DNA from: Brachyhypopomus gauderio
Taxonomy: Eukaryota > Chordata > Actinopteri > Gymnotiformes > Hypopomidae
Assembly: GCF_052324685.1 (NCBI RefSeq)
Contig: NC_135213.1
Location: 41,846,200-41,910,199 of the forward strand
DNA: 64,000 nucleotides
Reading direction: 5' to 3'
Shown one piece after another: positions 1-64,000 of this stretch (its first letter is position 1; each line of letters begins with the position of its first letter). The position numbers and the translations under genes are program-made. The notes under the pieces were generated by a model, which worked only from the letters and a program-made list of their open reading frames with translations, had not been told where the DNA came from and ran no database searches.

Positions 1-94
1 CATTTGCAACTCAGAAGCAATGACACTTGTGCACTCATCATTGAGCTTGAGGAAGTCCAAGGAATTGATCTCTATGTTACTCTCGCTCCGCCGA
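1..94. repeat. Partial unit (right end of the preceding repeat)
   Basis: This is the last 94 bases of the Met-to-Ser spacer of a unit that begins outside the window. It matches the bases just before every other tRNA-Ser. It shows that the array continues to the left. Confidence 0.97.
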
Positions 95-176
95 GCTGCG
101 ATGGCCGAGAGGTTAAGGCGTTGGACTTGAAATCCAATGGGGTTTCCCCGCGCAGGTTCGACTCCTGCTTGCAGCG
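95..176 (+). tRNA. tRNA-Ser(TGA), unit 1
   Basis: An 82-base class II tRNA that reads UCN serine codons, chiefly UCA. Acceptor arms 95-101 and 169-175 pair over seven positions (one G-U), with discriminator G at 176. The anticodon stem flanks a CTTGAAA loop with TGA at 128-130. The long variable arm is GGGG-TTT-CCCC. The T arm is 152-168 with loop TTCGACT. Box A is TGGCCGAGAGG at 102-112, with A where T or C is usual. Box B, GGTTCGACTCC (155-165), is canonical. There is no intron and no encoded CCA. Upstream I see no TATA box. The first T4 on this strand is at 233-236, an unusually long 56-base trailer. It converges with tRNA-Asp at 581-652. Confidence 0.98.
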
Positions 177-200
177 TGAGTGTCTTGTTGGGCGTGTGGA

Positions 201-220
201 AAGAGAGAGTGTGCTCTCTT
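201..220 (+). promoter_or_regulatory. Hairpin in the tRNA-Ser 3' trailer
   Basis: AAGAGAG (201-207) and CTCTCTT (214-220) are perfect complements around a 6-base loop. They lie 24 bases after the mature tRNA end and 12 bases before T4. Nearly every unit has it. Units 11 and 14 lose one GA but keep the whole 7-bp stem with a 4-base loop. Unit 2 has one mismatch. A role in trailer processing or termination is inference. Confidence 0.55.
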
Positions 221-232
221 CCTGCTAGCCAG

Positions 233-236
233 TTTT
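233..236 (+). terminator. Pol III T4 terminator of tRNA-Ser (unit 1)
   Basis: First run of four T on the + strand after tRNA-Ser, 56 bases past its 3' end. It recurs at the same offset in all units, minus 2 in units 11 and 14. Weaker stops inside the pyrimidine tract at 214-222 cannot be excluded. Confidence 0.7.
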
Positions 237-244
237 AAATATGC

Positions 245-320
245 TTCTCATGCCATTTGCAACTTTGTGCTGCCAAACTTTAGCAGTCCTAACTGATCCT
301 GAAATAGTCCCAGGAATTGA
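245..320. repeat. Diverged direct repeat, right copy (downstream of tRNA-Ser)
   Basis: Begins TTCTCATGCCATTTGCAACT and ends AGTCCCAGGAATTGA. It aligns along its length, with a 1-base length difference, to the segment before the next tRNA-Ser (1970-2046), which begins TTCTCAAGCCATTTGCAACT and ends AGTCCAAGGAATTGA. The ends match almost exactly and the middle is diverged. It recurs in every unit. Confidence 0.6.
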
Positions 321-570
321 GTTACAAATGGCTGCTTCGTCGTTACAATGTGTTGGCATGGAAATGCAGTGGGGTCTCTTGCAGCGTAGAGGATTAACTT
401 GCCTCTCTAATGTGATTTGTGATGAGACCTTATGCCACCAGTGGGGAGAGCTCGCACTCACAGGTGCTTCATCCAAAGATCTTCATGCAACATAGCGATG
501 TCTTGTTTCAGGTAAAAGAAAAAGTGCCACATTCTTTCATGGCCGGTCACTGGTTGCTCCGCCTTGCGCT

Positions 571-574
571 AAAA
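571..574 (-). terminator. Pol III T4 terminator of tRNA-Asp (unit 1)
   Basis: AAAA on the + strand is TTTT on the - strand, six bases after the tRNA-Asp 3' end at 581. It has the same offset in all 33 units. Confidence 0.85.
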
Positions 575-580
575 GAGGGT

Positions 581-652
581 CTCCCCGTCGGGGAATCGAA
601 CCCCGGTCTTCCGCGTGACAGGCGGAGATACTATCCACTATACTAACGAGGA
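581..652 (-). tRNA. tRNA-Asp(GTC), unit 1
   Basis: A 72-base tRNA on the - strand, reading GAU and GAC. The 5' arm TCCTCGT (652-646) pairs with ACGGGGA, with discriminator G at 581. The loop CTGTCAC carries GTC (617-619 on the + strand). The T arm is CGGGG-TTCGATT-CCCCG. Box A is TAGTATAGTGG and box B GGTTCGATTCC. Against the common metazoan gene (from memory), the 27-43 pair is T-A instead of C-G, a paired change that keeps the anticodon stem intact. T4 follows after six bases. The gene faces tRNA-Ser and diverges from tRNA-Met. Confidence 0.98.
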
Positions 653-692
653 CACGTGCTGTGTCTCGCAGTGATGCTGAGTCAGGTGACGT
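653..692. promoter_or_regulatory. Motif cluster abutting the tRNA-Asp 5' end
   Basis: Within 40 bp upstream of tRNA-Asp lie CACGTG (653-658, the E-box core, directly at the gene's 5' end), TGCTGAGTCA (675-684, exact NF-E2/AP-1-type core) and TGACGT (687-692, CRE half site). It is present in all units except unit 4, where the first motif reads CACGTA (5951-5956). Function is unproven, and short motifs can occur by chance. Confidence 0.35.
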
Positions 693-1149
693 GCACTTGT
701 CCCCTTGATTTTAAAGTACTCTGAATCATTGTGCCTGCAAGGAGGTGGTAAAAAGAACACATTGTGGTGATATTGACTCACTGTTGCCACTCCTCTTTTA
801 CCATCGTCAGTTTGTGGACTTATGATAGGAAAAACTCAAAGAATCTTGGTGACCTACAGGTTTGATTCATCTGCCTTCCTAGTTAAGTCATGCGAACCAT
901 TTGCTGCAAAATTGGCTTTAGCTACATTGGCAATTCATTTTGTCTTTGTATTCCAGTGCATTGTACCGAACTGCAATATCCATCTTAGATCAACTGAGAT
1001 TTTGCATTTCTCTCTTTCCCACATGCAAGTTCTGAATTTCTTGGCACACATTACTGCTTTGCATCTACTAAAAGCACTCCAGAGAAAGCTTCACTTCATA
1101 CCTTCATGAGGTAGCTGTCGTTTGTACTTGTATTTTGGTGGTATTTTTG

Positions 1150-1161
1150 TTTTTTTTTTTT
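1150..1161 (+). repeat. Polymorphic T-run (unit 1, 12 T)
   Basis: A homopolymer in the Asp-Met spacer whose length varies from 9 to 13 T among units. It accounts for most of the unit-length variation. In units 5, 7 and 8 the run is 13 T and the GTTT that follows elsewhere is missing. Confidence 0.9.
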
Positions 1162-1395
1162 GTTTGTGTGCGTTGTTTGTCTACTCTTGGAACATCCTGT
1201 GATTGGTTAGGGTAGGATTAGAGTTTAATTACGTTGGCCTCAGATTCTGGTTAATTCCAGGCTTCTTGTGCTAACCTTGTTGTTTGTTAGCTGTTGTTGG
1301 CAGTAATTAGTTGCTGCAGGTGCACTTGCCGCCATGCTCCAAGGAGTGAATTGGGGGCGGATACATTTTTTCTCCAGCTTTGTTAGTTCTTCCTC

Positions 1396-1422
1396 AGCCT
1401 CGCTTCTTCTTTCCTAGCCTCG
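1396..1422 (+). repeat. AGCCTCG direct repeat at the tRNA-Met 5' end
   Basis: AGCCTCG at 1396-1402 recurs 20 bp later at 1416-1422, where it forms the first bases of tRNA-Met plus the base before it. It is present in every unit, including the two short ones. It could be chance or a slip-duplication. Confidence 0.5.
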
Positions 1423-1489
1423 TTAGCACAGTAGGTAGCGCGTCAGTCTCATAATCTGAAGGTCGTGAGTTCGACCCTCACACGGGGCA
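1417..1489 (+). tRNA. Elongator tRNA-Met(CAT), unit 1, D-stem variant
   Basis: A 73-base tRNA inserting internal methionine. The acceptor arms are GCCTCGT and ACGGGGC with discriminator A. CAT is at 1450-1452 in the loop TCTCATAA. The T arm is GTGAG-TTCGACC-CTCAC. It is an elongator rather than an initiator: it starts G1-C72 and, from memory, differs from vertebrate elongator tRNA-Met only at position 59. This copy has G12 changed to A at 1428, giving an A-C mismatch in the D stem and altering box A. No other copy has this change. T5 follows at 1498-1502. Confidence 0.95.
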
Positions 1490-1497
1490 GCAGAAGC

Positions 1498-1502
1498 TTT
1501 TT
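1498..1502 (+). terminator. Pol III T5 terminator of tRNA-Met (unit 1)
   Basis: TTTTT eight bases after the discriminator base, inside GCAGAAGCTTTTT. It is unchanged in all 32 tRNA-Met copies. Confidence 0.9.
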
Positions 1503-1711
1503 GAAAAGATTGACGAGCCCCCAAAAGATGCTCAAACGCTCTTTCCTTATTCACTCGCATGCTGAGCACACCCCCTACCTGAAAATAGTATTGGCACATG
1601 ACTCTTACAGGTCATCCCTAGTTGATTCAAGCTGTGCTTTTTCTTTTGTAAATTCGCGTGTACACAGCAAGTTGTGTTGCATCCAATTCAATTCTCTCCA
1701 CTGACCGTTCA

Positions 1712-1740
1712 GTCAATACCTTGATGGCGTCTGTATTGAC
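1712..1740. repeat. Perfect 8-bp inverted repeat
   Basis: GTCAATAC (1712-1719) and GTATTGAC (1733-1740) around a 13-base loop, in every unit. In units 12, 18 and 19-26 the inner C is T (GTCAATAT), turning the closing C-G pair into a wobble. The role is unknown. Confidence 0.5.
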
Positions 1741-1840
1741 ACCTCTACTGAGACATCAAGCTGCCTCTTTGGAGCATGTTCGCTCCCAGATCAAACTGCA
1801 GTGTCGTGGTGCCAACACAGAATAATGGACCACGTCGGAC

Positions 1841-1890
1841 ACTTTTCACTTTTGATTCTTTTTGATTCACTTTTGATGACACGCTTTTGA
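1841..1890 (+). repeat. Short imperfect TTTTGA repeats
   Basis: CACTTTTGAT occurs at 1847-1856 and again at 1868-1877, with further TTTTTGATTC and CTTTTGAA copies between and after. This looks like old slippage, fixed in all units. Confidence 0.6.
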
Positions 1891-1969
1891 ATACCTGATC
1901 ACCTGGAATTGGTACCAGCTTGAAGTTAATAGTGAGTAGACTTATGGAGATTCATTTATTTGAATTTTC

Positions 1970-2046
1970 TTCTCAAGCCATTTGCAACTCAGAAGCAATG
2001 ACACTTGTGCACTCATCATTGAGCTTGAGGAAGTCCAAGGAATTGA
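1970..2046. repeat. Diverged direct repeat, left copy (upstream of tRNA-Ser)
   Basis: Partner of 245-320. Together the two copies bracket tRNA-Ser, this one ending 26 bp before the gene and the other starting 68 bp after it. An ancient duplication around the Ser gene is the simplest reading. Confidence 0.6.
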
Positions 2047-2072
2047 TCTCTATGTTACTCTCGCTCCGCCGA

Positions 2073-2154
2073 GCTGCGATGGCCGAGAGGTTAAGGCGTT
2101 GGACTTGAAATCCAATGGGGTTTCCCCGTGCAGGTTCGACTCCTGCTTGCAGCG
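2073..2154 (+). tRNA. tRNA-Ser(TGA), unit 2, position-48 variant
   Basis: Consensus except C to T at 2129, between the variable arm and the T stem (conventional position 48, the partner of G15). U48 still allows a weaker tertiary pair. Anticodon 2106-2108. Its trailer hairpin also has one mismatch. Confidence 0.96.
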
Positions 2155-2558
2155 TGAGTGTCTTGTTGGGCGTGTGGAAAGAAAGAGTGTGCTCTCTTCC
2201 TGCTAGCCAGTTTTAAATATGCTTCTCATGCCATTTGCAACTTTGTGCTGCCAAACTTTAACAGTCCTAACTGATCCTGAAATAGTCCCAGGAATTGAGT
2301 TACAAATGGCTGCTTCGTCGTTACAATGTGTTGGCATGGAAATGCAGTGGGGTCTCTTGCAGCTTAGAGGATTAACTTGCCTCTCTAATGTGATTTGTGA
2401 TGAGACCTTATGCCACCAGTGGGGAGAGCTTGCACTCACAGGTGCTTCATCCAAAGATCTTCATGCAACATAGTGATGTCTTGTTTCAGGTAAAAGAAAA
2501 AGTGCCACATTCTTTCATGGCCGGTCACTGGTTGCTCCGCCTTGCGCTAAAAGAGGGT

Positions 2559-2630
2559 CTCCCCGTCGGGGAATCGAACCCCGGTCTTCCGCGTGACAGG
2601 CGGAGATACTATCCACTATACTAACGAGGA
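2559..2630 (-). tRNA. tRNA-Asp(GTC), unit 2
   Basis: Matches the array consensus. Anticodon at 2595-2597 (+ strand). Confidence 0.98.
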
Positions 2631-3044
2631 CACGTGCTGTGTCTCGCAGTGATGCTGAGTCAGGTGACGTGCACTTGTCCCCTTGATTTTAAAGTACTCT
2701 GAATCATTGTGCCTGCAAGGAGGTGGTAAAAAGAACACATTGTGGTGATATTGACTCACTGTTGCCACTCCTCTTTTACCATCGTCAGTTTGTGGACTTA
2801 TGATAGGAAAAACTCAAAGAATCTTGGTGACCTACAAGTTTGATTCATCTGCCTTCCTAGTTAAGTTATGCAAACCATTTGCTGCAAAATTGGCTTTAGC
2901 TACATTGGCAATTCATTTTGTCTTTGTATTCCAGTGCATTGTACCGAACTGCAATATCCATCTTAGATCAACTGAGATTTTGCATTTCTCTCTTTCCCAC
3001 ATGCAAGTTCTGAATTTCTTGGCACACATTACTGCTTTGCATCT

Positions 3045-3046
3045 AG
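3045..3046. other. Deletion junction, unit 2
   Basis: GCATCTA joins GTTCTTCC directly. Full units have 318 bp between these points (1068-1385 in unit 1). The two breakpoints share TA, a 2-bp microhomology. The T-run is lost, and tRNA-Asp and tRNA-Met come within 446 bp. Confidence 0.95.
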
Positions 3047-3076
3047 TTCTTCCTCAGCCTCGCTTCTTCTTTCCTA

Positions 3077-3149
3077 GCCTCGTTAGCGCAGTAGGTAGCG
3101 CGTCAGTCTCATAATCTGAAGGTCGTGAGTTCGACCCTCACACGGGGTA
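3077..3149 (+). tRNA. Elongator tRNA-Met(CAT), unit 2, acceptor variant
   Basis: Anticodon 3110-3112. C72 is T at 3148, so the first acceptor pair is G-U instead of G-C. Only this copy has the change. It may weaken end processing or charging. Confidence 0.95.
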
Positions 3150-3732
3150 GCAGAAGCTTTTTGAAAAGATTGACGAGCCCCCAAAAGATGCTCAAACGCT
3201 CTTTCCTTATTCACTCGCATGCTGAGCACACCCCCTACCTGAAAATAGTATTGGCACATGACTCTTACAGGTCATCCCTAGTTGATTCAAGCTGTGCTTT
3301 TTCTTTTGTAAATTCGCGTGTACACAGCAAGTTGTGTTGCATCCAATTCAATTCTCTCCACTGACCGTTCAGTCAATACCTTGATGGCGTCTGTATTGAC
3401 ACCTCTACTGAGACATCAAGCTGCCTCTTTGGAGCATGTTCGCTCCCAGATCAAACTGCAGTGTCGTGGTGCCAACACAGAATAATGGACCACGTCGGAC
3501 ACTTTTCACTTTTGATTCTTTTTGATTCACTTTTGATGACACGCTTTTGAATACCTGATCACCTGGAATTGGTACCAGCTTGAAGTTAATAGTGAGTAGA
3601 CTTAAGGAGATTCATTTATTTGAATTTTCTTCTCAAGCCATTTGCAACTCAGAAGCAATGACACTTGTGCACTCATCATTGAGCTTGAGGAAGTCCAAGG
3701 AATTGATCTCTATGTTACTCTCGCTCCGCCGA

Positions 3733-3814
3733 GCTGCGATGGCCGAGAGGTTAAGGCGTTGGACTTGAAATCCAATGGGGTTTCCCCGCGCAGGTTCGAC
3801 TCCTGCTTGCAGCG
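3733..3814 (+). tRNA. tRNA-Ser(TGA), unit 3
   Basis: Consensus over all 82 bases. Anticodon 3766-3768. Confidence 0.98.
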
Positions 3815-4218
3815 TGAGTGTCTTGTTGGGCGTGTGGAAAGAGAGAGTGTGCTCTCTTCCTGCTAGCCAGTTTTAAATATGCTTCTCATGCCATTTGCAA
3901 CTTTGTGCTGCCAAACTTTAGCAGTCCTAACTGATCCTGAAATAGTCCCAGGAATTGAGTTACAAATGGCTGCTTCGTCGTTACAATGTGTTGGCATGGA
4001 AATGCAGTGGGGTCTCTTGCAGCGTAGAGGATTAACTTGCCTCTCTAATGTGATTTGTGATGAGACCTTATGCCACCAGTGGGGAGAGCTCGCACTCACA
4101 GGTGCTTCATCCAAAGATCTTCATGCAACATAGCGATGTCTTGTTTCAGGTAAAAGAAAAAGTGCCACATTCTTTCATGGCCGGTCACTGGTTGCTCCGC
4201 CTTGCGCTAAAAGAGGGT

Positions 4219-4290
4219 CTCCCCGTCGGGGAATCGAACCCCGGTCTTCCGCGTGACAGGCGGAGATACTATCCACTATACTAACGAGGA
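4219..4290 (-). tRNA. tRNA-Asp(GTC), unit 3
   Basis: Consensus. Anticodon 4255-4257 (+ strand). Confidence 0.98.
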
Positions 4291-4704
4291 CACGTGCTGT
4301 GTCTCGCAGTGATGCTGAGTCAGGTGACGTGCACTTGTCCCCTTGATTTTAAAGTACTCTGAATCATTGTGCCTGCAAGGAGGTGGTAAAAAGAACACAT
4401 TGTGGTGATATTGACTCACTGTTGCCACTCCTCTTTTACCATCGTCAGTTTGTGGACTTATGATAGGAAAAACTCAAAGAATCTTGGTGACCTACAGGTT
4501 TGATTCATCTGCCTTCCTAGTTAAGTCATGCGAACCATTTGCTGCAAAATTGGCTTTAGCTACATTGGCAATTCATTTTGTCTTTGTATTCCAGTGCATT
4601 GTACCGAACTGCAATATCCATCTTAGATCAACTGAGATTTTGCATTTCTCTCTTTCCCACATGCAAGTTCTGAATTTCTTGGCACACATTACTGCTTTGC
4701 ATCT

Positions 4705-4706
4705 AG
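4705..4706. other. Deletion junction, unit 3
   Basis: Base-for-base the same junction as in unit 2, so the two short units share one deletion event. Confidence 0.95.
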
Positions 4707-4736
4707 TTCTTCCTCAGCCTCGCTTCTTCTTTCCTA

Positions 4737-4809
4737 GCCTCGTTAGCGCAGTAGGTAGCGCGTCAGTCTCATAATCTGAAGGTCGTTAGTTCGACCCTCA
4801 CACGGGGCA
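4737..4809 (+). tRNA. Elongator tRNA-Met(CAT), unit 3, T-stem variant
   Basis: Anticodon 4770-4772. G51 is T at 4787, giving a T-C mismatch in the middle of the T stem. Only this copy has it. Probably destabilised. Confidence 0.94.
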
Positions 4810-5392
4810 GCAGAAGCTTTTTGAAAAGATTGACGAGCCCCCAAAAGATGCTCAAACGCTCTTTCCTTATTCACTCGCATGCTGAGCACACCCCCTACCT
4901 GAAAATAGTATTGGCACATGACTCTTACAGGTCATCCCTAGTTGATTCAAGCTGTGCTTTTTCTTTTGTAAATTCGCGTGTACACAGCAAGTTGTGTTGC
5001 ATCCAATTCAATTCTCTCCACTGACCGTTCAGTCAATACCTTGATGGCGTCTGTATTGACACCTCTACTGAGACATCAAGCTGCCTCTTTGGAGCATGTT
5101 CGCTCCCAGATCAAACTGCAGTGTCGTGGTGCCAACACAGAATAATGGACCACGTCGGACACTTTTCACTTTTGATTCTTTTTGATTCACTTTTGATGAC
5201 ACGCTTTTGAATACCTGATCACCTGGAATTGGTACCAGCTTGAAGTTAATAGTGAGTAGACTTATGGAGATTCATTTATTTGAATTTTCTTCTCAAGCCA
5301 TTTGCAACTCAGAAGCAATGACACTTGTGCACTCATCATTGAGCTTGAGTAAGTCCAAGGAATTGATCTCTATGTTACTCTCGCTCCGCCGA

Positions 5393-42275: not shown

Positions 42276-42348
42276 GCCTCGTTAGCGCAGTAGGTAGCGC
42301 GTCAGTCTCATAATCTGAAGGTCGTGAGTTCGACCCTCACACGGGGCA
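42276..42348 (+). tRNA. Elongator tRNA-Met(CAT), unit 22
   Basis: Consensus. Anticodon 42309-42311. Confidence 0.98.
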
Positions 42349-42931
42349 GCAGAAGCTTTTTGAAAAGATTGACGAGCCCCCAAAAGATGCTCAAACGCTC
42401 TTTCCTTATTCACTCGCATGCTGAGCACACCCCCTACCTGAAAATAGTATTGGCACATGACTCTTACAGGTCATCCCTAGTTGATTCAAGCTGTGCTTTT
42501 TCTTTTGTAAATTCGCGTGTACACAGCAAGTTGTGTTGCATCCAATTCAATTCTCTCCACTGACCGTTCAGTCAATATCTTGATGGCGTCTGTATTGACA
42601 CCTCTACTGAGACATCAAGCTGCCTCTTTGGAGCATGTTCGCTCCCAGATCAAACTGCAGTGTCGTGGTGCCAACACAGAATAATGGACCACGTCGGACA
42701 CTTTTCACTTTTGATTCTTTTTGATTCACTTTTGATGACACGCTTTTGAATACCTGATCACCTGGAATTGGTACCAGCTTGAAGTTAATAGTGAGTAGAC
42801 TTATGGAGATTCATTTATTTGAATTTTCTTCTCAAGCCATTTGCAACTCAGAAGCAATGACACTTGTGCACTCATCATTGAGCTTGAGGAAGTCCAAGGA
42901 ATTGATCTCTATGTTACTCTCGCTCCGCCGA

Positions 42932-43013
42932 GCTGCGATGGCCGAGAGGTTAAGGCGTTGGACTTGAAATCCAATGGGGTTTCCCCGCGCAGGTTCGACT
43001 CCTGCTTGCAGCG
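42932..43013 (+). tRNA. tRNA-Ser(TGA), unit 23
   Basis: Consensus. Anticodon 42965-42967. Confidence 0.98.
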
Positions 43014-43417
43014 TGAGTGTCTTGTTGGGCGTGTGGAAAGAGAGAGTGTGCTCTCTTCCTGCTAGCCAGTTTTAAATATGCTTCTCATGCCATTTGCAAC
43101 TTTGTGCTGCCAAACTTTAGCAGTCCTAACTGATCCTGAAATAGTCCCAGGAATTGAGTTACAAATGGCTGCTTCGTCGTTACAATGTGTTGGCATGGAA
43201 ATGCAGTGGGGTCTCTTGCAGCGTAGAGGATTAACTTGCCTCTCTAATGTGATTTGTGATGAGACCTTATGCCACCAGTGGGGAGAGCTCGCACTCACAG
43301 GTGCTTCATCCAAAGATCTTCATGCAACATAGCGATGTCTTGTTTCAGGTAAAAGAAAAAGTGCCACATTCTTTCATGGCCGGTCACTGGTTGCTCCGCC
43401 TTGCGCTAAAAGAGGGT

Positions 43418-43489
43418 CTCCCCGTCGGGGAATCGAACCCCGGTCTTCCGCGTGACAGGCGGAGATACTATCCACTATACTAACGAGGA
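43418..43489 (-). tRNA. tRNA-Asp(GTC), unit 23
   Basis: Consensus. Anticodon 43454-43456 (+ strand). Confidence 0.98.
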
Positions 43490-44250
43490 CACGTGCTGTG
43501 TCTCGCAGTGATGCTGAGTCAGGTGACGTGCACTTGTCCCCTTGATTTTAAAGTACTCTGAATCATTGTGCCTGCAAGGAGGTGGTAAAAAGAACACATT
43601 GTGGTGATATTGACTCACTGTTGCCACTCCTCTTTTACCATCGTCAGTTTGTGGACTTATGATAGGAAAAACTCAAAGAATCTTGGTGACCTACAAGTTT
43701 GATTCATCTGCCTTCCTAGTTAAGTCATGCAAACCATTTGCTGCAAAATTGGCTTTAGCTACATTGGCAATTCATTTTGTCTTCGTATTCCAGTGCATTG
43801 TACCGAACTGCAATATCCATCTTAGATCAACTGAGATTTTGCATTTCTCTCTTTCCCACATGCAAGTTCTGAATTTCTTGGCACACATTACTGCTTTGCA
43901 TCTACTAAAAGCACTCCAGAGAAAGCTTCACTTCATACCTTCATGAGGTAGCTGTCGTTTGTACTTGTATTTTGGTGGTATTTTTGTTTTTTTTTGTTTG
44001 TGTGCGTTGTTTGTCTACTCTTGGAACATCCTGTGATTGGTTAGGGTAGGATTAGAGTTTAATTACGTTGGCCTCAGATTCTGGTTAATTCCAGGCTTCT
44101 TGTGCTAACCTTGTTGTTTGTTAGCTGTTGTTGGCAGTAATTAGTTGCTGCAGGTGCACTTGCCGCCATGCTCCAAGGAGTGAATTGGGGGCGGATACAT
44201 TTTTTCTCCAGCTTTGTTAGTTCTTCCTCAGCCTCGCTTCTTCTTTCCTA

Positions 44251-44323
44251 GCCTCGTTAGCGCAGTAGGTAGCGCGTCAGTCTCATAATCTGAAGGTCGT
44301 GAGTTCGACCCTCACACGGGGCA
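44251..44323 (+). tRNA. Elongator tRNA-Met(CAT), unit 23
   Basis: Consensus. Anticodon 44284-44286. Confidence 0.98.
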
Positions 44324-44906
44324 GCAGAAGCTTTTTGAAAAGATTGACGAGCCCCCAAAAGATGCTCAAACGCTCTTTCCTTATTCACTCGCATGCTGAG
44401 CACACCCCCTACCTGAAAATAGTATTGGCACATGACTCTTACAGGTCATCCCTAGTTGATTCAAGCTGTGCTTTTTCTTTTGTAAATTCGCGTGTACACA
44501 GCAAGTTGTGTTGCATCCAATTCAATTCTCTCCACTGACCGTTCAGTCAATATCTTGATGGCGTCTGTATTGACACCTCTACTGAGACATCAAGCTGCCT
44601 CTTTGGAGCATGTTCGCTCCCAGATCAAACTGCAGTGTCGTGGTGCCAACACAGAATAATGGACCACGTCGGACACTTTTCACTTTTGATTCTTTTTGAT
44701 TCACTTTTGATGACACGCTTTTGAATACCTGATCACCTGGAATTGGTACCAGCTTGAAGTTAATAGTGAGTAGACTTATGGAGATTCATTTATTTGAATT
44801 TTCTTCTCAAGCCATTTGCAACTCAGAAGCAATGACACTTGTGCACTCATCATTGAGCTTGAGGAAGTCCAAGGAATTGATCTCTATGTTACTCTCGCTC
44901 CGCCGA

Positions 44907-44988
44907 GCTGCGATGGCCGAGAGGTTAAGGCGTTGGACTTGAAATCCAATGGGGTTTCCCCGCGCAGGTTCGACTCCTGCTTGCAGCG
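44907..44988 (+). tRNA. tRNA-Ser(TGA), unit 24
   Basis: Consensus. Anticodon 44940-44942. Confidence 0.98.
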
Positions 44989-45392
44989 TGAGTGTCTTGT
45001 TGGGCGTGTGGAAAGAGAGAGTGTGCTCTCTTCCTGCTAGCCAGTTTTAAATATGCTTCTCATGCCATTTGCAACTTTGTGCTGCCAAACTTTAGCAGTC
45101 CTAACTGATCCTGAAATAGTCCCAGGAATTGAGTTACAAATGGCTGCTTCGTCGTTACAATGTGTTGGCATGGAAATGCAGTGGGGTCTCTTGCAGCGTA
45201 GAGGATTAACTTGCCTCTCTAATGTGATTTGTGATGAGACCTTATGCCACCAGTGGGGAGAGCTCGCACTCACAGGTGCTTCATCCAAAGATCTTCATGC
45301 AACATAGCGATGTCTTGTTTCAGGTAAAAGAAAAAGTGCCACATTCTTTCATGGCCGGTCACTGGTTGCTCCGCCTTGCGCTAAAAGAGGGT

Positions 45393-45464
45393 CTCCCCGT
45401 CGGGGAATCGAACCCCGGTCTTCCGCGTGACAGGCGGAGATACTATCCACTATACTAACGAGGA
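45393..45464 (-). tRNA. tRNA-Asp(GTC), unit 24
   Basis: Consensus. Anticodon 45429-45431 (+ strand). Confidence 0.98.
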
Positions 45465-46225
45465 CACGTGCTGTGTCTCGCAGTGATGCTGAGTCAGGTG
45501 ACGTGCACTTGTCCCCTTGATTTTAAAGTACTCTGAATCATTGTGCCTGCAAGGAGGTGGTAAAAAGAACACATTGTGGTGATATTGACTCACTGTTGCC
45601 ACTCCTCTTTTACCATCGTCAGTTTGTGGACTTATGATAGGAAAAACTCAAAGAATCTTGGTGACCTACAAGTTTGATTCATCTGCCTTCCTAGTTAAGT
45701 CATGCAAACCATTTGCTGCAAAATTGGCTTTAGCTACATTGGCAATTCATTTTGTCTTCGTATTCCAGTGCATTGTACCGAACTGCAATATCCATCTTAG
45801 ATCAACTGAGATTTTGCATTTCTCTCTTTCCCACATGCAAGTTCTGAATTTCTTGGCACACATTACTGCTTTGCATCTACTAAAAGCACTCCAGAGAAAG
45901 CTTCACTTCATACCTTCATGAGGTAGCTGTCGTTTGTACTTGTATTTTGGTGGTATTTTTGTTTTTTTTTGTTTGTGTGCGTTGTTTGTCTACTCTTGGA
46001 ACATCCTGTGATTGGTTAGGGTAGGATTAGAGTTTAATTACGTTGGCCTCAGATTCTGGTTAATTCCAGGCTTCTTGTGCTAACCTTGTTGTTTGTTAGC
46101 TGTTGTTGGCAGTAATTAGTTGCTGCAGGTGCACTTGCCGCCATGCTCCAAGGAGTGAATTGGGGGCGGATACATTTTTTCTCCAGCTTTGTTAGTTCTT
46201 CCTCAGCCTCGCTTCTTCTTTCCTA

Positions 46226-46298
46226 GCCTCGTTAGCGCAGTAGGTAGCGCGTCAGTCTCATAATCTGAAGGTCGTGAGTTCGACCCTCACACGGGGCA
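46226..46298 (+). tRNA. Elongator tRNA-Met(CAT), unit 24
   Basis: Consensus. Anticodon 46259-46261. Confidence 0.98.
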
Positions 46299-46881
46299 GC
46301 AGAAGCTTTTTGAAAAGATTGACGAGCCCCCAAAAGATGCTCAAACGCTCTTTCCTTATTCACTCGCATGCTGAGCACACCCCCTACCTGAAAATAGTAT
46401 TGGCACATGACTCTTACAGGTCATCCCTAGTTGATTCAAGCTGTGCTTTTTCTTTTGTAAATTCGCGTGTACACAGCAAGTTGTGTTGCATCCAATTCAA
46501 TTCTCTCCACTGACCGTTCAGTCAATATCTTGATGGCGTCTGTATTGACACCTCTACTGAGACATCAAGCTGCCTCTTTGGAGCATGTTCGCTCCCAGAT
46601 CAAACTGCAGTGTCGTGGTGCCAACACAGAATAATGGACCACGTCGGACACTTTTCACTTTTGATTCTTTTTGATTCACTTTTGATGACACGCTTTTGAA
46701 TACCTGATCACCTGGAATTGGTACCAGCTTGAAGTTAATAGTGAGTAGACTTATGGAGATTCATTTATTTGAATTTTCTTCTCAAGCCATTTGCAACTCA
46801 GAAGCAATGACACTTGTGCACTCATCATTGAGCTTGAGGAAGTCCAAGGAATTGATCTCTATGTTACTCTCGCTCCGCCGA

Positions 46882-46963
46882 GCTGCGATGGCCGAGAGGT
46901 TAAGGCGTTGGACTTGAAATCCAATGGGGTTTCCCCGCGCAGGTTCGACTCCTGCTTGCAGCG
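46882..46963 (+). tRNA. tRNA-Ser(TGA), unit 25
   Basis: Consensus. Anticodon 46915-46917. Confidence 0.98.
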
Positions 46964-47367
46964 TGAGTGTCTTGTTGGGCGTGTGGAAAGAGAGAGTGTG
47001 CTCTCTTCCTGCTAGCCAGTTTTAAATATGCTTCTCATGCCATTTGCAACTTTGTGCTGCCAAACTTTAGCAGTCCTAACTGATCCTGAAATAGTCCCAG
47101 GAATTGAGTTACAAATGGCTGCTTCGTCGTTACAATGTGTTGGCATGGAAATGCAGTGGGGTCTCTTGCAGCGTAGAGGATTAACTTGCCTCTCTAATGT
47201 GATTTGTGATGAGACCTTATGCCACCAGTGGGGAGAGCTCGCACTCACAGGTGCTTCATCCAAAGATCTTCATGCAACATAGCGATGTCTTGTTTCAGGT
47301 AAAAGAAAAAGTGCCACATTCTTTCATGGCCGGTCACTGGTTGCTCCGCCTTGCGCTAAAAGAGGGT

Positions 47368-47439
47368 CTCCCCGTCGGGGAATCGAACCCCGGTCTTCCG
47401 CGTGACAGGCGGAGATACTATCCACTATACTAACGAGGA
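47368..47439 (-). tRNA. tRNA-Asp(GTC), unit 25
   Basis: Consensus. Anticodon 47404-47406 (+ strand). Confidence 0.98.
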
Positions 47440-48200
47440 CACGTGCTGTGTCTCGCAGTGATGCTGAGTCAGGTGACGTGCACTTGTCCCCTTGATTTTA
47501 AAGTACTCTGAATCATTGTGCCTGCAAGGAGGTGGTAAAAAGAACACATTGTGGTGATATTGACTCACTGTTGCCACTCCTCTTTTACCATCGTCAGTTT
47601 GTGGACTTATGATAGGAAAAACTCAAAGAATCTTGGTGACCTACAAGTTTGATTCATCTGCCTTCCTAGTTAAGTCATGCAAACCATTTGCTGCAAAATT
47701 GGCTTTAGCTACATTGGCAATTCATTTTGTCTTCGTATTCCAGTGCATTGTACCGAACTGCAATATCCATCTTAGATCAACTGAGATTTTGCATTTCTCT
47801 CTTTCCCACATGCAAGTTCTGAATTTCTTGGCACACATTACTGCTTTGCATCTACTAAAAGCACTCCAGAGAAAGCTTCACTTCATACCTTCATGAGGTA
47901 GCTGTCGTTTGTACTTGTATTTTGGTGGTATTTTTGTTTTTTTTTGTTTGTGTGCGTTGTTTGTCTACTCTTGGAACATCCTGTGATTGGTTAGGGTAGG
48001 ATTAGAGTTTAATTACGTTGGCCTCAGATTCTGGTTAATTCCAGGCTTCTTGTGCTAACCTTGTTGTTTGTTAGCTGTTGTTGGCAGTAATTAGTTGCTG
48101 CAGGTGCACTTGCCGCCATGCTCCAAGGAGTGAATTGGGGGCGGATACATTTTTTCTCCAGCTTTGTTAGTTCTTCCTCAGCCTCGCTTCTTCTTTCCTA

Positions 48201-48273
48201 GCCTCGTTAGCGCAGTAGGTAGCGCGTCAGTCTCATAATCTGAAGGTCGTGAGTTCGACCCTCACACGGGGCA
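48201..48273 (+). tRNA. Elongator tRNA-Met(CAT), unit 25
   Basis: Consensus. Anticodon 48234-48236. Confidence 0.98.
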
Positions 48274-48856
48274 GCAGAAGCTTTTTGAAAAGATTGACGA
48301 GCCCCCAAAAGATGCTCAAACGCTCTTTCCTTATTCACTCGCATGCTGAGCACACCCCCTACCTGAAAATAGTATTGGCACATGACTCTTACAGGTCATC
48401 CCTAGTTGATTCAAGCTGTGCTTTTTCTTTTGTAAATTCGCGTGTACACAGCAAGTTGTGTTGCATCCAATTCAATTCTCTCCACTGACCGTTCAGTCAA
48501 TATCTTGATGGCGTCTGTATTGACACCTCTACTGAGACATCAAGCTGCCTCTTTGGAGCATGTTCGCTCCCAGATCAAACTGCAGTGTCGTGGTGCCAAC
48601 ACAGAATAATGGACCACGTCGGACACTTTTCACTTTTGATTCTTTTTGATTCACTTTTGATGACACGCTTTTGAATACCTGATCACCTGGAATTGGTACC
48701 AGCTTGAAGTTAATAGTGAGTAGACTTATGGAGATTCATTTATTTGAATTTTCTTCTCAAGCCATTTGCAACTCAGAAGCAATGACACTTGTGCACTCAT
48801 CATTGAGCTTGAGGAAGTCCAAGGAATTGATCTCTATGTTACTCTCGCTCCGCCGA

Positions 48857-48938
48857 GCTGCGATGGCCGAGAGGTTAAGGCGTTGGACTTGAAATCCAAT
48901 GGGGTTTCCCCGCGCAGGTTCGACTCCTGCTTGCAGCG
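48857..48938 (+). tRNA. tRNA-Ser(TGA), unit 26
   Basis: Consensus. Anticodon 48890-48892. Confidence 0.98.
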
Positions 48939-49342
48939 TGAGTGTCTTGTTGGGCGTGTGGAAAGAGAGAGTGTGCTCTCTTCCTGCTAGCCAGTTTTAA
49001 ATATGCTTCTCATGCCATTTGCAACTTTGTGCTGCCAAACTTTAGCAGTCCTAACTGATCCTGAAATAGTCCCAGGAATTGAGTTACAAATGGCTGCTTC
49101 GTCGTTACAATGTGTTGGCATGGAAATGCAGTGGGGTCTCTTGCAGCGTAGAGGATTAACTTGCCTCTCTAATGTGATTTGTGATGAGACCTTATGCCAC
49201 CAGTGGGGAGAGCTCGCACTCACAGGTGCTTCATCCAAAGATCTTCATGCAACATAGCGATGTCTTGTTTCAGGTAAAAGAAAAAGTGCCACATTCTTTC
49301 ATGGCCGGTCACTGGTTGCTCCGCCTTGCGCTAAAAGAGGGT

Positions 49343-49414
49343 CTCCCCGTCGGGGAATCGAACCCCGGTCTTCCGCGTGACAGGCGGAGATACTATCCAC
49401 TATACTAACGAGGA
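49343..49414 (-). tRNA. tRNA-Asp(GTC), unit 26
   Basis: Consensus. Anticodon 49379-49381 (+ strand). Confidence 0.98.
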
Positions 49415-50175
49415 CACGTGCTGTGTCTCGCAGTGATGCTGAGTCAGGTGACGTGCACTTGTCCCCTTGATTTTAAAGTACTCTGAATCATTGTGCCTGC
49501 AAGGAGGTGGTAAAAAGAACACATTGTGGTGATATTGACTCACTGTTGCCACTCCTCTTTTACCATCGTCAGTTTGTGGACTTATGATAGGAAAAACTCA
49601 AAGAATCTTGGTGACCTACAAGTTTGATTCATCTGCCTTCCTAGTTAAGTCATGCAAACCATTTGCTGCAAAATTGGCTTTAGCTACATTGGCAATTCAT
49701 TTTGTCTTCGTATTCCAGTGCATTGTACCGAACTGCAATATCCATCTTAGATCAACTGAGATTTTGCATTTCTCTCTTTCCCACATGCAAGTTCTGAATT
49801 TCTTGGCACACATTACTGCTTTGCATCTACTAAAAGCACTCCAGAGAAAGCTTCACTTCATACCTTCATGAGGTAGCTGTCGTTTGTACTTGTATTTTGG
49901 TGGTATTTTTGTTTTTTTTTGTTTGTGTGCGTTGTTTGTCTACTCTTGGAACATCCTGTGATTGGTTAGGGTAGGATTAGAGTTTAATTACGTTGGCCTC
50001 AGATTCTGGTTAATTCCAGGCTTCTTGTGCTAACCTTGTTGTTTGTTAGCTGTTGTTGGCAGTAATTAGTTGCTGCAGGTGCACTTGCCGCCATGCTCCA
50101 AGGAGTGAATTGGGGGCGGATACATTTTTTCTCCAGCTTTGTTAGTTCTTCCTCAGCCTCGCTTCTTCTTTCCTA

Positions 50176-50248
50176 GCCTCGTTAGCGCAGTAGGTAGCGC
50201 GTCAGTCTCATAATCTGAAGGTCGTGAGTTCGACCCTCACACGGGGCA
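50176..50248 (+). tRNA. Elongator tRNA-Met(CAT), unit 26
   Basis: Consensus. Anticodon 50209-50211. Confidence 0.98.
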
Positions 50249-50831
50249 GCAGAAGCTTTTTGAAAAGATTGACGAGCCCCCAAAAGATGCTCAAACGCTC
50301 TTTCCTTATTCACTCGCATGCTGAGCACACCCCCTACCTGAAAATAGTATTGGCACATGACTCTTACAGGTCATCCCTAGTTGATTCAAGCTGTGCTTTT
50401 TCTTTTGTAAATTCGCGTGTACACAGCAAGTTGTGTTGCATCCAATTCAATTCTCTCCACTGACCGTTCAGTCAATATCTTGATGGCGTCTGTATTGACA
50501 CCTCTACTGAGACATCAAGCTGCCTCTTTGGAGCATGTTCGCTCCCAGATCAAACTGCAGTGTCGTGGTGCCAACACAGAATAATGGACCACGTCGGACA
50601 CTTTTCACTTTTGATTCTTTTTGATTCACTTTTGATGACACGCTTTTGAATACCTGATCACCTGGAATTGGTACCAGCTTGAAGTTAATAGTGAGTAGAC
50701 TTATGGAGATTCATTTATTTGAATTTTCTTCTCAAGCCATTTGCAACTCAGAAGCAATGACACTTGTGCACTCATCATTGAGCTTGAGGAAGTCCAAGGA
50801 ATTGATCTCTATGTTACTCTCGCTCCGCCGA

Positions 50832-60133: not shown

Positions 60134-60716
60134 GCAGAAGCTTTTTGAAAAGATTGACGAGCCCCCAAAAGATGCTCAAACGCTCTTTCCTTATTCACTC
60201 GCATGCTGAGCACACCCCCTACCTGAAAATAGTATTGGCACATGACTCTTACAGGTCATCCCTAGTTGATTCAAGCTGTGCTTTTTCTTTTGTAAATTCG
60301 CGTGTACACAGCAAGTTGTGTTGCATCCAATTCAATTCTCTCCACTGACCGTTCAGTCAATACCTTGATGGCGTCTGTATTGACACCTCTACTGAGACAT
60401 CAAGCTGCCTCTTTGGAGCATGTTCGCTCCCAGATCAAACTGCAGTGTCGTGGTGCCAACACAGAATAATGGACCACGTCGGACACTTTTCACTTTTGAT
60501 TCTTTTTGATTCACTTTTGATGACACGCTTTTGAATACCTGATCACCTGGAATTGGTACCAGCATGAAGTTAATAGTGAGTAGACTTATGGAGATTCATT
60601 TATTTGAATTTTCTTCTCAAGCCATTTGCAACTCAGAAGCAATGACACTTGTGCACTCATCATTGAGCTTGAGGAAGTCCAAGGAATTGATCTCTATGTT
60701 ACTCTCGCTCCGCCGA

Positions 60717-60798
60717 GCTGCGATGGCCGAGAGGTTAAGGCGTTGGACTTGAAATCCAATGGGGTTTCCCCGCGCAGGTTCGACTCCTGCTTGCAGCG
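60717..60798 (+). tRNA. tRNA-Ser(TGA), unit 32
   Basis: Consensus. Anticodon 60750-60752. Confidence 0.98.
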
Positions 60799-61202
60799 TG
60801 AGTGTCTTGTTGGGCGTGTGGAAAGAGAGAGTGTGCTCTCTTCCTGCTAGCCAGTTTTAAATATGCTTCTCATGCCATTTGCAACTTTGTGCTGACAAAC
60901 TTTAGCAGTCCTAACTGATCCTGAAATAGTCCCAGGAATTGAGTTACAAATGGCTGCTTCGTCGTTACAATGTGTTGGCATGGAAATGCAGTGGGGTCTC
61001 TTGCAGCGTAGAGGATTAACTTGCCTCTCTAATGTGATTTGTGATGAGACCTTATGCCACCAGTGGGGAGAGCTCGCACTCACAGGTGCTTCATCCAAAG
61101 ATCTTCATGCAACATAGCGATGTCTTGTTTCAGGTAAAAGAAAAAGTGCCACATTCTTTCATGGCCAGTCACTGGTTGCTCCGCCTTGCGCTAAAAGAGG
61201 GT

Positions 61203-61274
61203 CTCCCCGTCGGGGAATCGAACCCCGGTCTTCCGCGTGACAGGCGGAGATACTATCCACTATACTAACGAGGA
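61203..61274 (-). tRNA. tRNA-Asp(GTC), unit 32
   Basis: Consensus. Anticodon 61239-61241 (+ strand). Confidence 0.98.
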
Positions 61275-62036
61275 CACGTGCTGTGTCTCGCAGTGATGCT
61301 GAGTCAGGTGACGTGCACTTGTCCCCTTGATTTTAAAGTACTCTGAATCATTGTGCCTGCAAGGAGGTGGTAAAAAGAACACATTGTGGTGATATTGACT
61401 CACTGTTGCCACTCCTCTTTTACCATCGTCAGTTTGTGGACTTATGATAGGAAAAACTCAAAGAATCTTGGTGACCTACAGGTTTGATTCATCTGCCTTC
61501 CTAGTTAAGTCATGCAAACCATTTGCTGCAAAATTGGCTTTAGCTACATTGGCAATTCATTTTGTCTTTGTATTCCAGTGCATTGTACCGAACTGCAATA
61601 TCCATCTTAGATCAACTGAGATTTTGCATTTCTCTCTTTCCCACATGCAAGTTCTAAATTTCTTGGCACACATTACTGCTTTGCATCTACTAAAAGCACT
61701 CCAGAGAAAGCTTCACTTCATACCTTCATGAGGTAGGTGTCGTTTGTACTTGTATTTTGGTGGTATTTTTGTTTTTTTTTTGTTTGTGTGCGTTGTTTGT
61801 CTACTCTTGGAACATCCTGTGATTGGTTAGGGTAGGATTAGAGTTTAATTACGTTGGCCTCAGATTCTGGTTAATTCCAGGCTTCTTGTGCTAACCTTGT
61901 TGTTTGTTAGCTGTTGTTGGCAGTAATTAGTTGCTGCAGGTGCACTTGCCGCCATGCTCCAAGGAGTGAATTGGGGGCGGATACATTTTTTCTCCAGCTT
62001 TGTTAGTTCTTCCTCAGCCTCGCTTCTTCTTTCCTA

Positions 62037-62109
62037 GCCTCGTTAGCGCAGTAGGTAGCGCGTCAGTCTCATAATCTGAAGGTCGTGAGTTCGACCCTCA
62101 CACGGGGCA
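62037..62109 (+). tRNA. Elongator tRNA-Met(CAT), unit 32
   Basis: Consensus. Last complete Met gene in the window. Anticodon 62070-62072. Confidence 0.98.
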
Positions 62110-62692
62110 GCAGAAGCTTTTTGAAAAGATTGACGAGCCCCCAAAAGATGCTCAAACGCTCTTTCCTTATTCACTCGCATGCTGAGCACACCCCCTACCT
62201 GAAAATAGTATTGGCACATGACTCTTACAGGTCATCCCTAGTTGATTCAAGCTGTGCTTTTTCTTTTGTAAATTCGCGTGTACACAGCAAGTTGTGTTGC
62301 ATCCAATTCAATTCTCTCCACTGACCGTTCAGTCAATACCTTGATGGCGTCTGTATTGACACCTCTACTGAGACATCAAGCTGCCTCTTTGGAGCATGTT
62401 CGCTCCCAGATCAAACTGCAGTGTCGTGGTGCCAACACAGAATAATGGACCACGTCGGACACTTTTCACTTTTGATTCTTTTTGATTCACTTTTGATGAC
62501 ACGCTTTTGAATACCTGATCACCTGGAATTGGTACCAGCATGAAGTTAATAGTGAGTAGACTTATGGAGATTCATTTATTTGAATTTTCTTCTCAAGCCA
62601 TTTGCAACTCAGAAGCAATGACACTTGTGCACTCATCATTGAGCTTGAGGAAGTCCAAGGAATTGATCTCTATGTTACTCTCGCTCCGCCGA

Positions 62693-62774
62693 GCTGCGAT
62701 GGCCGAGAGGTTAAGGCGTTGGACTTGAAATCCAATGGGGTTTCCCCGCGCAGGTTCGACTCCTGCTTGCAGCG
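62693..62774 (+). tRNA. tRNA-Ser(TGA), unit 33
   Basis: Consensus. Anticodon 62726-62728. Confidence 0.98.
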
Positions 62775-63178
62775 TGAGTGTCTTGTTGGGCGTGTGGAAA
62801 GAGAGAGTGTGCTCTCTTCCTGCTAGCCAGTTTTAAATATGCTTCTCATGCCATTTGCAACTTTGTGCTGACAAACTTTAGCAGTCCTAACTGATCCTGA
62901 AATAGTCCCAGGAATTGAGTTACAAATGGCTGCTTCGTCGTTACAATGTGTTGGCATGGAAATGCAGTGGGGTCTCTTGCAGCGTAGAGGATTAACTTGC
63001 CTCTCTAATGTGATTTGTGATGAGACCTTATGCCACCAGTGGGGAGAGCTCGCACTCACAGGTGCTTCATCCAAAGATCTTCATGCAACATAGCGATGTC
63101 TTGTTTCAGGTAAAAGAAAAAGTGCCACATTCTTTCATGGCCAGTCACTGGTTGCTCCGCCTTGCGCTAAAAGAGGGT

Positions 63179-63250
63179 CTCCCCGTCGGGGAATCGAACC
63201 CCGGTCTTCCGCGTGACAGGCGGAGATACTATCCACTATACTAACGAGGA
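63179..63250 (-). tRNA. tRNA-Asp(GTC), unit 33
   Basis: Consensus. Anticodon 63215-63217 (+ strand). Confidence 0.98.
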
Positions 63251-64000
63251 CACGTGCTGTGTCTCGCAGTGATGCTGAGTCAGGTGACGTGCACTTGTCC
63301 CCTTGATTTTAAAGTACTCTGAATCATTGTGCCTGCAAGGAGGTGGTAAAAAGAACACATTGTGGTGATATTGACTCACTGTTGCCACTCCTCTTTTACC
63401 ATCGTCAGTTTGTGGACTTATGATAGGAAAAACTCAAAGAATCTTGGTGACCTACAGGTTTGATTCATCTGCCTTCCTAGTTAAGTCATGCAAACCATTT
63501 GCTGCAAAATTGGCTTTAGCTACATTGGCAATTCATTTTGTCTTTGTATTCCAGTGCATTGTACCGAACTGCAATATCCATCTTAGATCAACTGAGATTT
63601 TGCATTTCTCTCTTTCCCACATGCAAGTTCTAAATTTCTTGGCACACATTACTGCTTTGCATCTACTAAAAGCACTCCAGAGAAAGCTTCACTTCATACC
63701 TTCATGAGGTAGGTGTCGTTTGTACTTGTATTTTGGTGGTATTTTTGTTTTTTTTTTGTTTGTGTGCGTTGTTTGTCTACTCTTGGAACATCCTGTGATT
63801 GGTTAGGGTAGGATTAGAGTTTAATTACGTTGGCCTCAGATTCTGGTTAATTCCAGGCTTCTTGTGCTAACCTTGTTGTTTGTTAGCTGTTGTTGGCAGT
63901 AATTAGTTGCTGCAGGTGCACTTGCCGCCATGCTCCAAGGAGTGAATTGGGGGCGGATACATTTTTTCTCCAGCTTTGTTAGTTCTTCCTCAGCCTCGCT

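What the first reader, a model, noticed from the sequence alone, without database searches (positions are those of the whole stretch)
1..64000. At least 33 tandem copies of a three-tRNA unit (Ser-UGA, Asp-GUC, elongator Met)
98 tRNA genes fill 64 kb with nothing else, and both edges lie inside the array. Tandem tDNA arrays are known, as in Xenopus laevis and Entamoeba. I do not recognise this gene trio and 1.98-kb unit from memory. The copy number is far above what three isoacceptors usually need, which raises the question of bulk expression, a structural or insulator role, or selfish amplification.
Basis: partly seen in the sequence, partly recalled or inferred. Interest (0 to 1): 0.75.

Follow-up and report, generated by a model that had tools for sequence, protein, structure and literature searches.

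The report
Giant tandem tRNA gene array, fish
A genome that looks like a fish's holds hundreds of near-identical copies of a small DNA unit carrying three transfer-RNA genes, probably a bulk supply of protein-making parts for eggs and embryos; such arrays are known from zebrafish and frogs, but here the array's aspartate tRNA differs by one letter from a few scattered genes, so its use can be tested directly.

Summary
Confirmed. The window holds 98 tRNA genes (33 Ser-UGA, 33 Asp-GUC on the minus strand, 32 elongator Met) in 32 complete units (30 of about 1,976 bp, 2 of 1,660 bp), 99.0-100% alike. It is a slice of a 316-kb array reaching the end of a 42-Mb scaffold in a 797-Mb genome, probably a bony fish. 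A spacer tag matches 392 places genome-wide. Differences between units look like real, CpG-driven mutation, not an assembler's copies. Three other tandem tRNA arrays were sampled, one a diverged Ser/Asp sister.

Two results sharpen it. All 86 array Asp genes counted carry T at D-loop position 20a; a 45-mer with C there has 10 exact matches, none on C3, C57, C134 or C212. No intact elongator-Met gene was seen outside the array, in listings capped at 100 places.

Best reading: an oocyte/maternal-type high-copy tRNA supply, as in zebrafish and Xenopus, kept alike by concerted evolution; its Met and Ser-UGA genes probably also serve the body. Expression was not tested. The kind is known; this member and its testable mark appear new.

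The parts
1..64000 (+). inner slice of the tandem tRNA array (32 complete units plus partial units at both ends); the array spans about C3:41,665,328 to the scaffold end 41,981,624, with interruptions; parts between the fetched stretches are known only from pattern matches
95..2072 (+). first complete unit (1,978 bp), Ser start to next Ser start
95..176 (+). tRNA-Ser(UGA), first of 33 copies
   Evidence: Rfam tRNA 62.9-63.1 bits in the three other copies scanned
177..236 (+). long Ser 3' trailer: first TTTT is 56 nt downstream in 60 of 64 units (54 or 58 nt in the other 4), preceded by a predicted hairpin (about 191-230)
   Evidence: a predicted fold only
581..652 (-). tRNA-Asp(GUC), first of 33 copies, array isodecoder (T at position 20a); TTTT 6 nt downstream in 64 of 64 units
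1068..1385 (+). block missing from the short (1,660-bp) units
1417..1489 (+). elongator tRNA-Met(CAU), first of 32 copies; TTTT 8 nt downstream in 62 of 64 units
2073..5392 (+). two short units of 1,660 bp
38982..50831 (+). six consecutive units (21-26) with identical sequence: recent local amplification

Best explanation
It is a tandem array of RNA polymerase III tRNA genes, one of several in this (probably fish) genome, that supplies Ser-UGA, Asp and elongator-Met tRNA in bulk. Most likely it is the high-copy, oocyte/maternal-type set: active in growing oocytes and early embryos, where tRNA is stockpiled, and largely methylated and quiet elsewhere, while a handful of scattered genes supply Asp tRNA later. 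Unequal crossing-over and conversion keep the units alike, so selection acts on the array as a whole and single copies drift. Shown here: array structure, copy number by pattern, other arrays, the Asp difference, CpG-type decay, no detectable selection on single copies, conserved gene bodies between sister arrays. Inferred: transcription, germline methylation, oocyte timing. Because no intact elongator-Met gene and no standard Ser-UGA gene was found elsewhere, some units are probably active in somatic cells as well.
For: Gene integrity: each of 32 complete units keeps all three genes; Pol III T-runs at +6 (Asp, 64 of 64 units) and +8 (Met, 62 of 64). Isodecoder split: Asp position 20a is T in 86 of 86 distinct array genes counted (73 of the window array, 13 of the C57 array, among these one cut by a locus end and one that ARAGORN does not call) and C in 8 of 8 scattered genes read; a 45-mer of the C type has 10 exact matches genome-wide, on C9 (7), C17, C18 and C119, none on C3, C57, C134 or C212. 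Zebrafish shows this arrangement with expression data: isodecoders present in eggs come from repetitive regions, late ones from scattered genes, and Asp-GTC is a named switching example with two isodecoders told apart by northern blot (PMC11417395, section 20 and passages). Xenopus has a dual oocyte/somatic tRNA gene system (PMC3565088 citing Stutz 1989, passages) and 5-formylcytosine on oocyte-specific tandem tRNA genes (PMC11500080, a commentary, passages). CpG positions vary in 31 of 116, other G/C in 43 of 774, as methylated DNA would; after correcting for this, tRNA bodies vary as the rest does (19 seen, 18.9 expected). Between sister arrays the Asp body is identical in the unit compared (one difference in the consensus of the UGA units) and the Ser body 80/82, while aligned stretches that include spacer are 84-86%. 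Neighbouring units are more alike (7.3 against 8.6 differences, 0 of 5,000 shuffles). The one off-array Met copy seen (C2) is an 82-bp copy of gene plus trailer up to the T-run, joined to a tRNA-like SINE: what a reverse-transcribed array transcript would leave.
Against: No expression, methylation or read-depth data. For Met and Ser-UGA no scattered partner was found, so the dual system is seen for Asp only; a purely maternal array could not feed the body with Met tRNA. Within the array, tRNA bodies show no purifying selection, which equally fits many silent copies; one of the two window Asp copies scanned with Rfam scores lower than the other (47.1 against 57.5 bits). Ser has no T-run nearer than 54-58 nt. 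In zebrafish some isodecoders expressed at all stages have copies in both contexts, so array position alone does not prove maternal use. The species is unidentified, so zebrafish and frog are analogies.
Confidence: 0.6

Rival explanations
1. Constitutive bulk supply: the array is the ordinary, body-wide source of these three tRNAs, with copy number drifting upward and no special germline role.
For: No intact elongator Met seen outside the array (capped listings) and no match to the recalled standard Ser-UGA (0), so somatic cells probably use array genes; gene bodies conserved between sister arrays.
Against: Ten scattered Asp genes of a different isodecoder persist, which suggests a division of labour; CpG decay suggests heavy methylation; in zebrafish isodecoders encoded only in repetitive regions are the early ones.
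Confidence: 0.25
2. Selfish or passive satellite-like amplification: most units are silent passengers spread by unequal crossing-over.
For: No selection visible on single copies; six identical neighbouring units; transposons sit in the array; 392 spacer matches.
Against: Ser and Asp bodies are conserved between sister arrays while spacers diverge; terminators for Asp and Met kept in 64 and 62 of 64 units; no gene missing from the 32 window units.
Confidence: 0.1
3. Boundary or insulator element of the human 1q23.3 type.
For: tRNA genes can act as barriers (recalled); the array reaches a scaffold end.
Against: No CTCF core within 1 mismatch in 64 kb, below chance; GC 45%, CpG o/e 0.58, not a CpG-rich island.
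Confidence: 0.03
4. Assembly artefact: a few true units expanded by the assembler.
For: Scaffold C3 ends inside the array and C134 has a round length of 370,000 bp, so the layout beyond C3 is uncertain; no read depth.
Against: 24 distinct sequences among 32 units, similarity that falls with distance, CpG-type variants, different transposons inside the array.
Confidence: 0.02

Closest known systems
Zebrafish chromosome 4 long-arm tRNA clusters (PMC11417395, one section and passages; PMC11075544, passages)
   Same: Vertebrate; most tRNA genes in repetitive clusters; isodecoders present in eggs come from repetitive regions, later ones from scattered genes; Asp-GTC is one of the switching tRNAs.
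   Different: Here arrays were seen on several contigs (C3, C7, C57, C71), not one chromosome arm; the Ser-UGA/Asp/Met trio is not mentioned in what I read; no expression data here.
Xenopus oocyte-type tandem tRNA genes (PMC3565088, PMC11500080, passages; unit details recalled)
   Same: Tandem high-copy genes, separate somatic genes, association with modified cytosines.
   Different: Xenopus unit is about 3.2 kb with eight tRNA genes (recalled); different set of tRNAs.
Human 1q23.3 tRNA tandem repeat (PMC4041453, passages)
   Same: Vertebrate head-to-tail unit with tRNAs on both strands, including Asp on the antisense strand; 98% unit identity.
   Different: 7.3-kb GC-rich unit with five tRNAs, CTCF-bound, 9-43 copies per allele; here about 2 kb, 45% GC, no CTCF motif, 392 spacer matches.
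Entamoeba tRNA arrays (PMC2652664, abstract in a search listing only)
   Same: Multi-tRNA tandem units.
   Different: Protist; 25 array types holding almost all tRNA genes, with short tandem repeats between genes.
Hydractinia and Nippostrongylus tandem tRNA arrays (PMC11067881, PMC5765664, passages)
   Same: Tens to hundreds of near-identical tRNA units seen in genome assemblies.
   Different: Hydractinia: arrays for all 20 amino acids; Nippostrongylus: single-gene units (Trp, Ser).
Arabidopsis SYY cluster (PMC12308677, abstract and outline)
   Same: Tandem tRNA-Ser/Tyr cluster, methylated, silent in most tissues, used in particular cells.
   Different: Plant, different tRNAs, root cap rather than oocyte.

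Membership tests
Dual (oocyte/somatic) tRNA gene system | One isoacceptor encoded by a high-copy tandem family | tested here: met
   392 spacer matches; Asp core 638 matches genome-wide
Dual (oocyte/somatic) tRNA gene system | A second, small, dispersed family with a distinguishable sequence | tested here: inconclusive
   Met for Asp: 10 exact C20a matches, none on C3, C57, C134, C212. Not found for elongator Met (1 apparent pseudogene; capped listings) or Ser-UGA (0, recalled pattern)
Dual (oocyte/somatic) tRNA gene system | Array type expressed in oocyte/early embryo, dispersed type later | not testable with these tools
   No RNA data for this species
Dual (oocyte/somatic) tRNA gene system | Modified cytosines on the array | tested here: inconclusive
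   Only indirect: CpG hypervariability and spacer CpG o/e 0.36
Functional Pol III tRNA genes | Cloverleaf recognised by a tRNA model | tested here: met
   All three genes: ARAGORN, Rfam 47.1-66.8 bits for 7 copies
Functional Pol III tRNA genes | T-run close downstream | tested here: inconclusive
   Asp +6 in 64 of 64 and Met +8 in 62 of 64 units; Ser only at +54 to +58
CTCF-bound tRNA boundary repeat (human 1q23.3 type) | CTCF motif in each unit | tested here: not met
   0 matches of the recalled core within 1 mismatch
CTCF-bound tRNA boundary repeat (human 1q23.3 type) | GC-rich, CpG-dense unit | tested here: not met
   GC 0.45; CpG o/e 0.58 for the unit, 0.36 for spacer
Satellite without gene function | No more conservation of gene bodies than of spacer | tested here: inconclusive
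   Within the array equal, as a satellite would be; between sister arrays bodies conserved and spacers not
Entamoeba-type arrays | Nearly all tRNA genes of the genome lie in arrays | not tested
   The genome-wide survey scored only 63 of 74,024 candidates

The most novel reading that the evidence does not exclude
In this vertebrate the only working genes for elongator tRNA-Met (and perhaps Ser-UGA) lie in one methylated, satellite-like array family: an essential tRNA with no dispersed backup, whose supply depends on array-level homogenisation and is coupled copy for copy to Ser and Asp. The T20a/C20a Asp mark would then let one read array output against dispersed output in any cell.
Probability: 0.35. 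Interest if true: 0.65.

Novelty: new member of a known kind. Interest (0 to 1): 0.45.

Why it matters
Whether giant tRNA arrays are a germline stockpile, an ordinary supply or genomic freight is open in most animals; for zebrafish the authors write that how the different tRNA genes are selectively activated is not known (PMC11417395, passages). This genome offers a natural label: one base separates ten scattered Asp genes from the array type (628 core matches remain once the ten are set aside, of which 86 array genes were read and all had the array base), beside genes (elongator Met) that seem to have no intact scattered copy. One tRNA-seq series would tell how much of the tRNA comes from arrays and when.

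Tried and rejected
Other RNA genes in the unit: Rfam at E<=1 on two units finds tRNA only; so does Rfam at gathering scores on eleven fetched loci. CTCF core (recalled) absent. The excess of variable sites in tRNA bodies (19 of 227 against 80 of 1,749, Fisher p 0.022) first looked like transcription-associated mutation; it disappears after stratifying by CpG, other G/C and A/T, so that reading was dropped. The Ser trailer hairpin as a small-RNA precursor: fold only, no further evidence. Species: not identified; a fish by COX1/ND2 translation (compared with recalled sequences), an Ig V-set domain gene and a SINE that looks like a teleost V-SINE (recalled). Type-2 elongator Met (recalled): only one match, a mutated array unit. 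A PDB search of COX1 failed on coordinates and was not repeated; a first script failed on file names and was redone. Papers on this gene trio: searches show none in the titles and abstract starts listed; several lists were capped (20 of 307, 15 of 17, 12 of 79, 40 of 140, 10 of 18).
Full report
OBSERVATION. ARAGORN tRNA genes in the window: 33 Ser(TGA), 33 Asp(GTC, minus strand), 32 Met(CAT). Cut at Ser starts there are 32 complete units: 30 of 1,974-1,978 bp and 2 of 1,660 bp. Pairwise identity is 0.990-1.000, median 0.996; 24 sequences are distinct, and units 21-26 are identical to one another.

EXTENT. The window is C3:41,846,200-41,910,199 of a 796.5-Mb assembly in 840 contigs. The array begins near C3:41,665,328 and runs to the last base of scaffold C3, 41,981,624, about 316 kb with interruptions; stretches between the fetched loci are known from pattern matches only. 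A spacer 37-mer matches 391 places forward and 1 reverse within 3 mismatches, on C3 and C134 in the places listed; a 501-bp piece of C212 is also array, 99.6%. The tool's note calls counts of repeats lower bounds, though pattern counts are given as whole.

ORGANISM. Not named. COX1 reads through 13 TGA codons; COX1 and ND2 translations look like those of bony fish (compared with recalled sequences only). A gene 0.24 Mb left of the array edge has an Ig V-set domain. I treat it as a bony fish.

NOT AN ARTEFACT. I aligned 64 units cut from the stretches fetched around and including the window; units from C134, C212 and most of the left part of the array were not included. Variable sites: CpG 12 of 44 in tRNA, 7 of 24 in 40-bp flanks, 12 of 48 in spacer; other G/C 5 of 89, 6 of 100, 32 of 585; A/T 2 of 94, 3 of 116, 20 of 876. 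A CpG excess of this size is a mark of real mutation in methylated DNA. Neighbouring units differ by 7.3 sites on average against 8.6 in shuffled order (0 of 5,000 shuffles as low; 52 contiguous units), as expected from local unequal exchange.

SELECTION. Variable sites are denser in tRNA bodies (19 of 227) than in the rest (80 of 1,749), but stratified by CpG class the count equals expectation (19 against 18.9; odds ratio 1.01). So single copies are not visibly protected and are not extra-mutable. One of two Asp copies scanned with Rfam scores 47.1 bits against 57.5. Between arrays it is different: see next paragraph.

OTHER ARRAYS. The Ser core has 625 matches, more than the 392 units, at least partly because a second array lies on C57: 662-bp units with Ser and Asp(-), the Ser mostly alternating UGA and CGA (11 units compared). 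Stretches around the genes align to the window unit at 83.9% and 85.9%; the Asp body is identical in the unit compared (one difference in the UGA-unit consensus) and the Ser body 80 of 82. The window unit looks like such a Ser-Asp pair with extra DNA, about 1.1 kb of it holding the Met gene, which has no match in the C57 unit. A tRNA family survey scored only 63 of 74,024 candidates but shows further series on C7 and C71; samples hold Thr(TGT) in 1,219-bp units and Lys(TTT)/Leu(TAG)/Glu(CTC) in roughly 0.97-kb steps. Apart from a weak match between the C71 Lys and the Met gene (74-76%), blastn at E 0.001 finds nothing shared with the window unit.

DISPERSED COUNTERPARTS. Asp: 638 core matches, 4 forward and 634 reverse. 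Eight of the nine listed outside the arrays were read; all have C at position 20a and flanks unrelated to the arrays. In 86 distinct array genes (73 of the window array, 13 of C57) the base is T without exception; further loci that overlap one another were dropped from the count and show T too. An exact search for a 45-mer of the C type gives 10 genes, 7 on C9 and one each on C17, C18, C119; a C-type gene with another change in the 45-mer would be missed. Met: the standard 73-mer finds 390 within 3 mismatches, none exact among those listed, where fewest mismatches come first; two shorter cores find 400 and 399. The listings show only C3, C134, C212 and one copy on C2, but each shows 100 places at most, so copies with 2-3 mismatches, or on later contigs, could hide. 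In the 39-mer search 1 of 399 is on the reverse strand, that C2 copy; scattered genes should be about half reverse, so few others are likely. The C2 copy differs at acceptor position 2 and at A58, ends after the trailer where the T-run begins, and joins a tRNA-like SINE: probably a retrocopy of an array transcript. Ser-UGA of the recalled standard sequence: 0; a scattered Ser-UGA with another sequence is not excluded.

ANATOMY. T-runs follow Asp at +6 (64 of 64 units) and Met at +8 (62 of 64); Ser has TTTT only at +56 in 60 of 64 units, after a predicted hairpin. The C57 Ser has a T-run closer in. No CTCF core. No RNA family but tRNA in the unit or in eleven loci.

MECHANISM. Zebrafish gives the best model: isodecoders present in eggs are encoded in repetitive regions, late ones by scattered genes, with Asp-GTC switching from one isodecoder to another (PMC11417395, section 20 read in full). 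Wilson and Postlethwait hypothesised the same for chromosome 4 tRNA genes (PMC11075544, passages). In Xenopus there is a dual tRNA gene system (PMC3565088, passages), and 5-formylcytosine marks oocyte-specific tandem tRNA genes at zygotic activation (PMC11500080, passages). The CpG decay seen here fits arrays that carry methylcytosine in the germline. I infer an oocyte/maternal-type supply for Asp and, because Met and Ser-UGA seem to lack partners, a body-wide supply for these.

NOVELTY. Tandem or clustered repetitive tRNA genes are known in Entamoeba, human, Hydractinia, Nippostrongylus, Arabidopsis, Xenopus and zebrafish (papers named in Closest known systems); 65% and 87% of tRNA genes and pseudogenes lie in clusters in zebrafish and stickleback (PMC2888827, passages). 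I found no paper on this trio in seven searches (listings only, several capped). It is a new member of a known kind, of moderate interest, raised by the Asp mark and the apparent lack of other Met genes.

Noticed in passing
L005 43-2919 (C3, left part of the array): A 2.9-kb element with inverted ends CACTAGAAGTCCC and a TTAA target duplication (piggyBac-like by recall) sits in the TTTTAA after a tRNA-Ser.
   Followed up: partly
L005 from 4119, L004 before 2900, L017 before 7129: Related transposon stretches (96-99% alike where they align; a DUF6729 domain found in the L005 frame, none in the L017 frames scanned) meet the array at the same point inside a tRNA-Met gene, with a 7-bp sequence TTGGCGC or TTAGCGC at the junctions; the array's left edge is one of these junctions. 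Possible tRNA-gene-targeting transposon, or one insertion spread by exchange.
   Followed up: partly
L032 (C57): Mostly alternating Ser-UGA and Ser-CGA units; the consensus of the UGA units has T at position 1 opposite C72, a mismatch in the acceptor stem.
   Followed up: partly
L020 (C134 1-3000) and L019: C134 starts with a satellite of roughly 200 bp; the tRNA array of that contig is seen from about 73.9 kb; the stretch between was not read.
   Followed up: no
L044 (C7) and L045 (C71): Tandem Thr-UGU array and a Lys/Leu/Glu array in the same genome.
   Followed up: partly
L021-L024 (C777, C790, C811, C812): Four contigs hold COX1 twice, the second copy mostly partial or split into pieces: probably concatenated mtDNA assemblies.
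   Followed up: no
L043 2646-2805 (C2): A tRNA-Met copy joined to a SINE head; suggests that array Met transcripts were present in the germline.
   Followed up: yes
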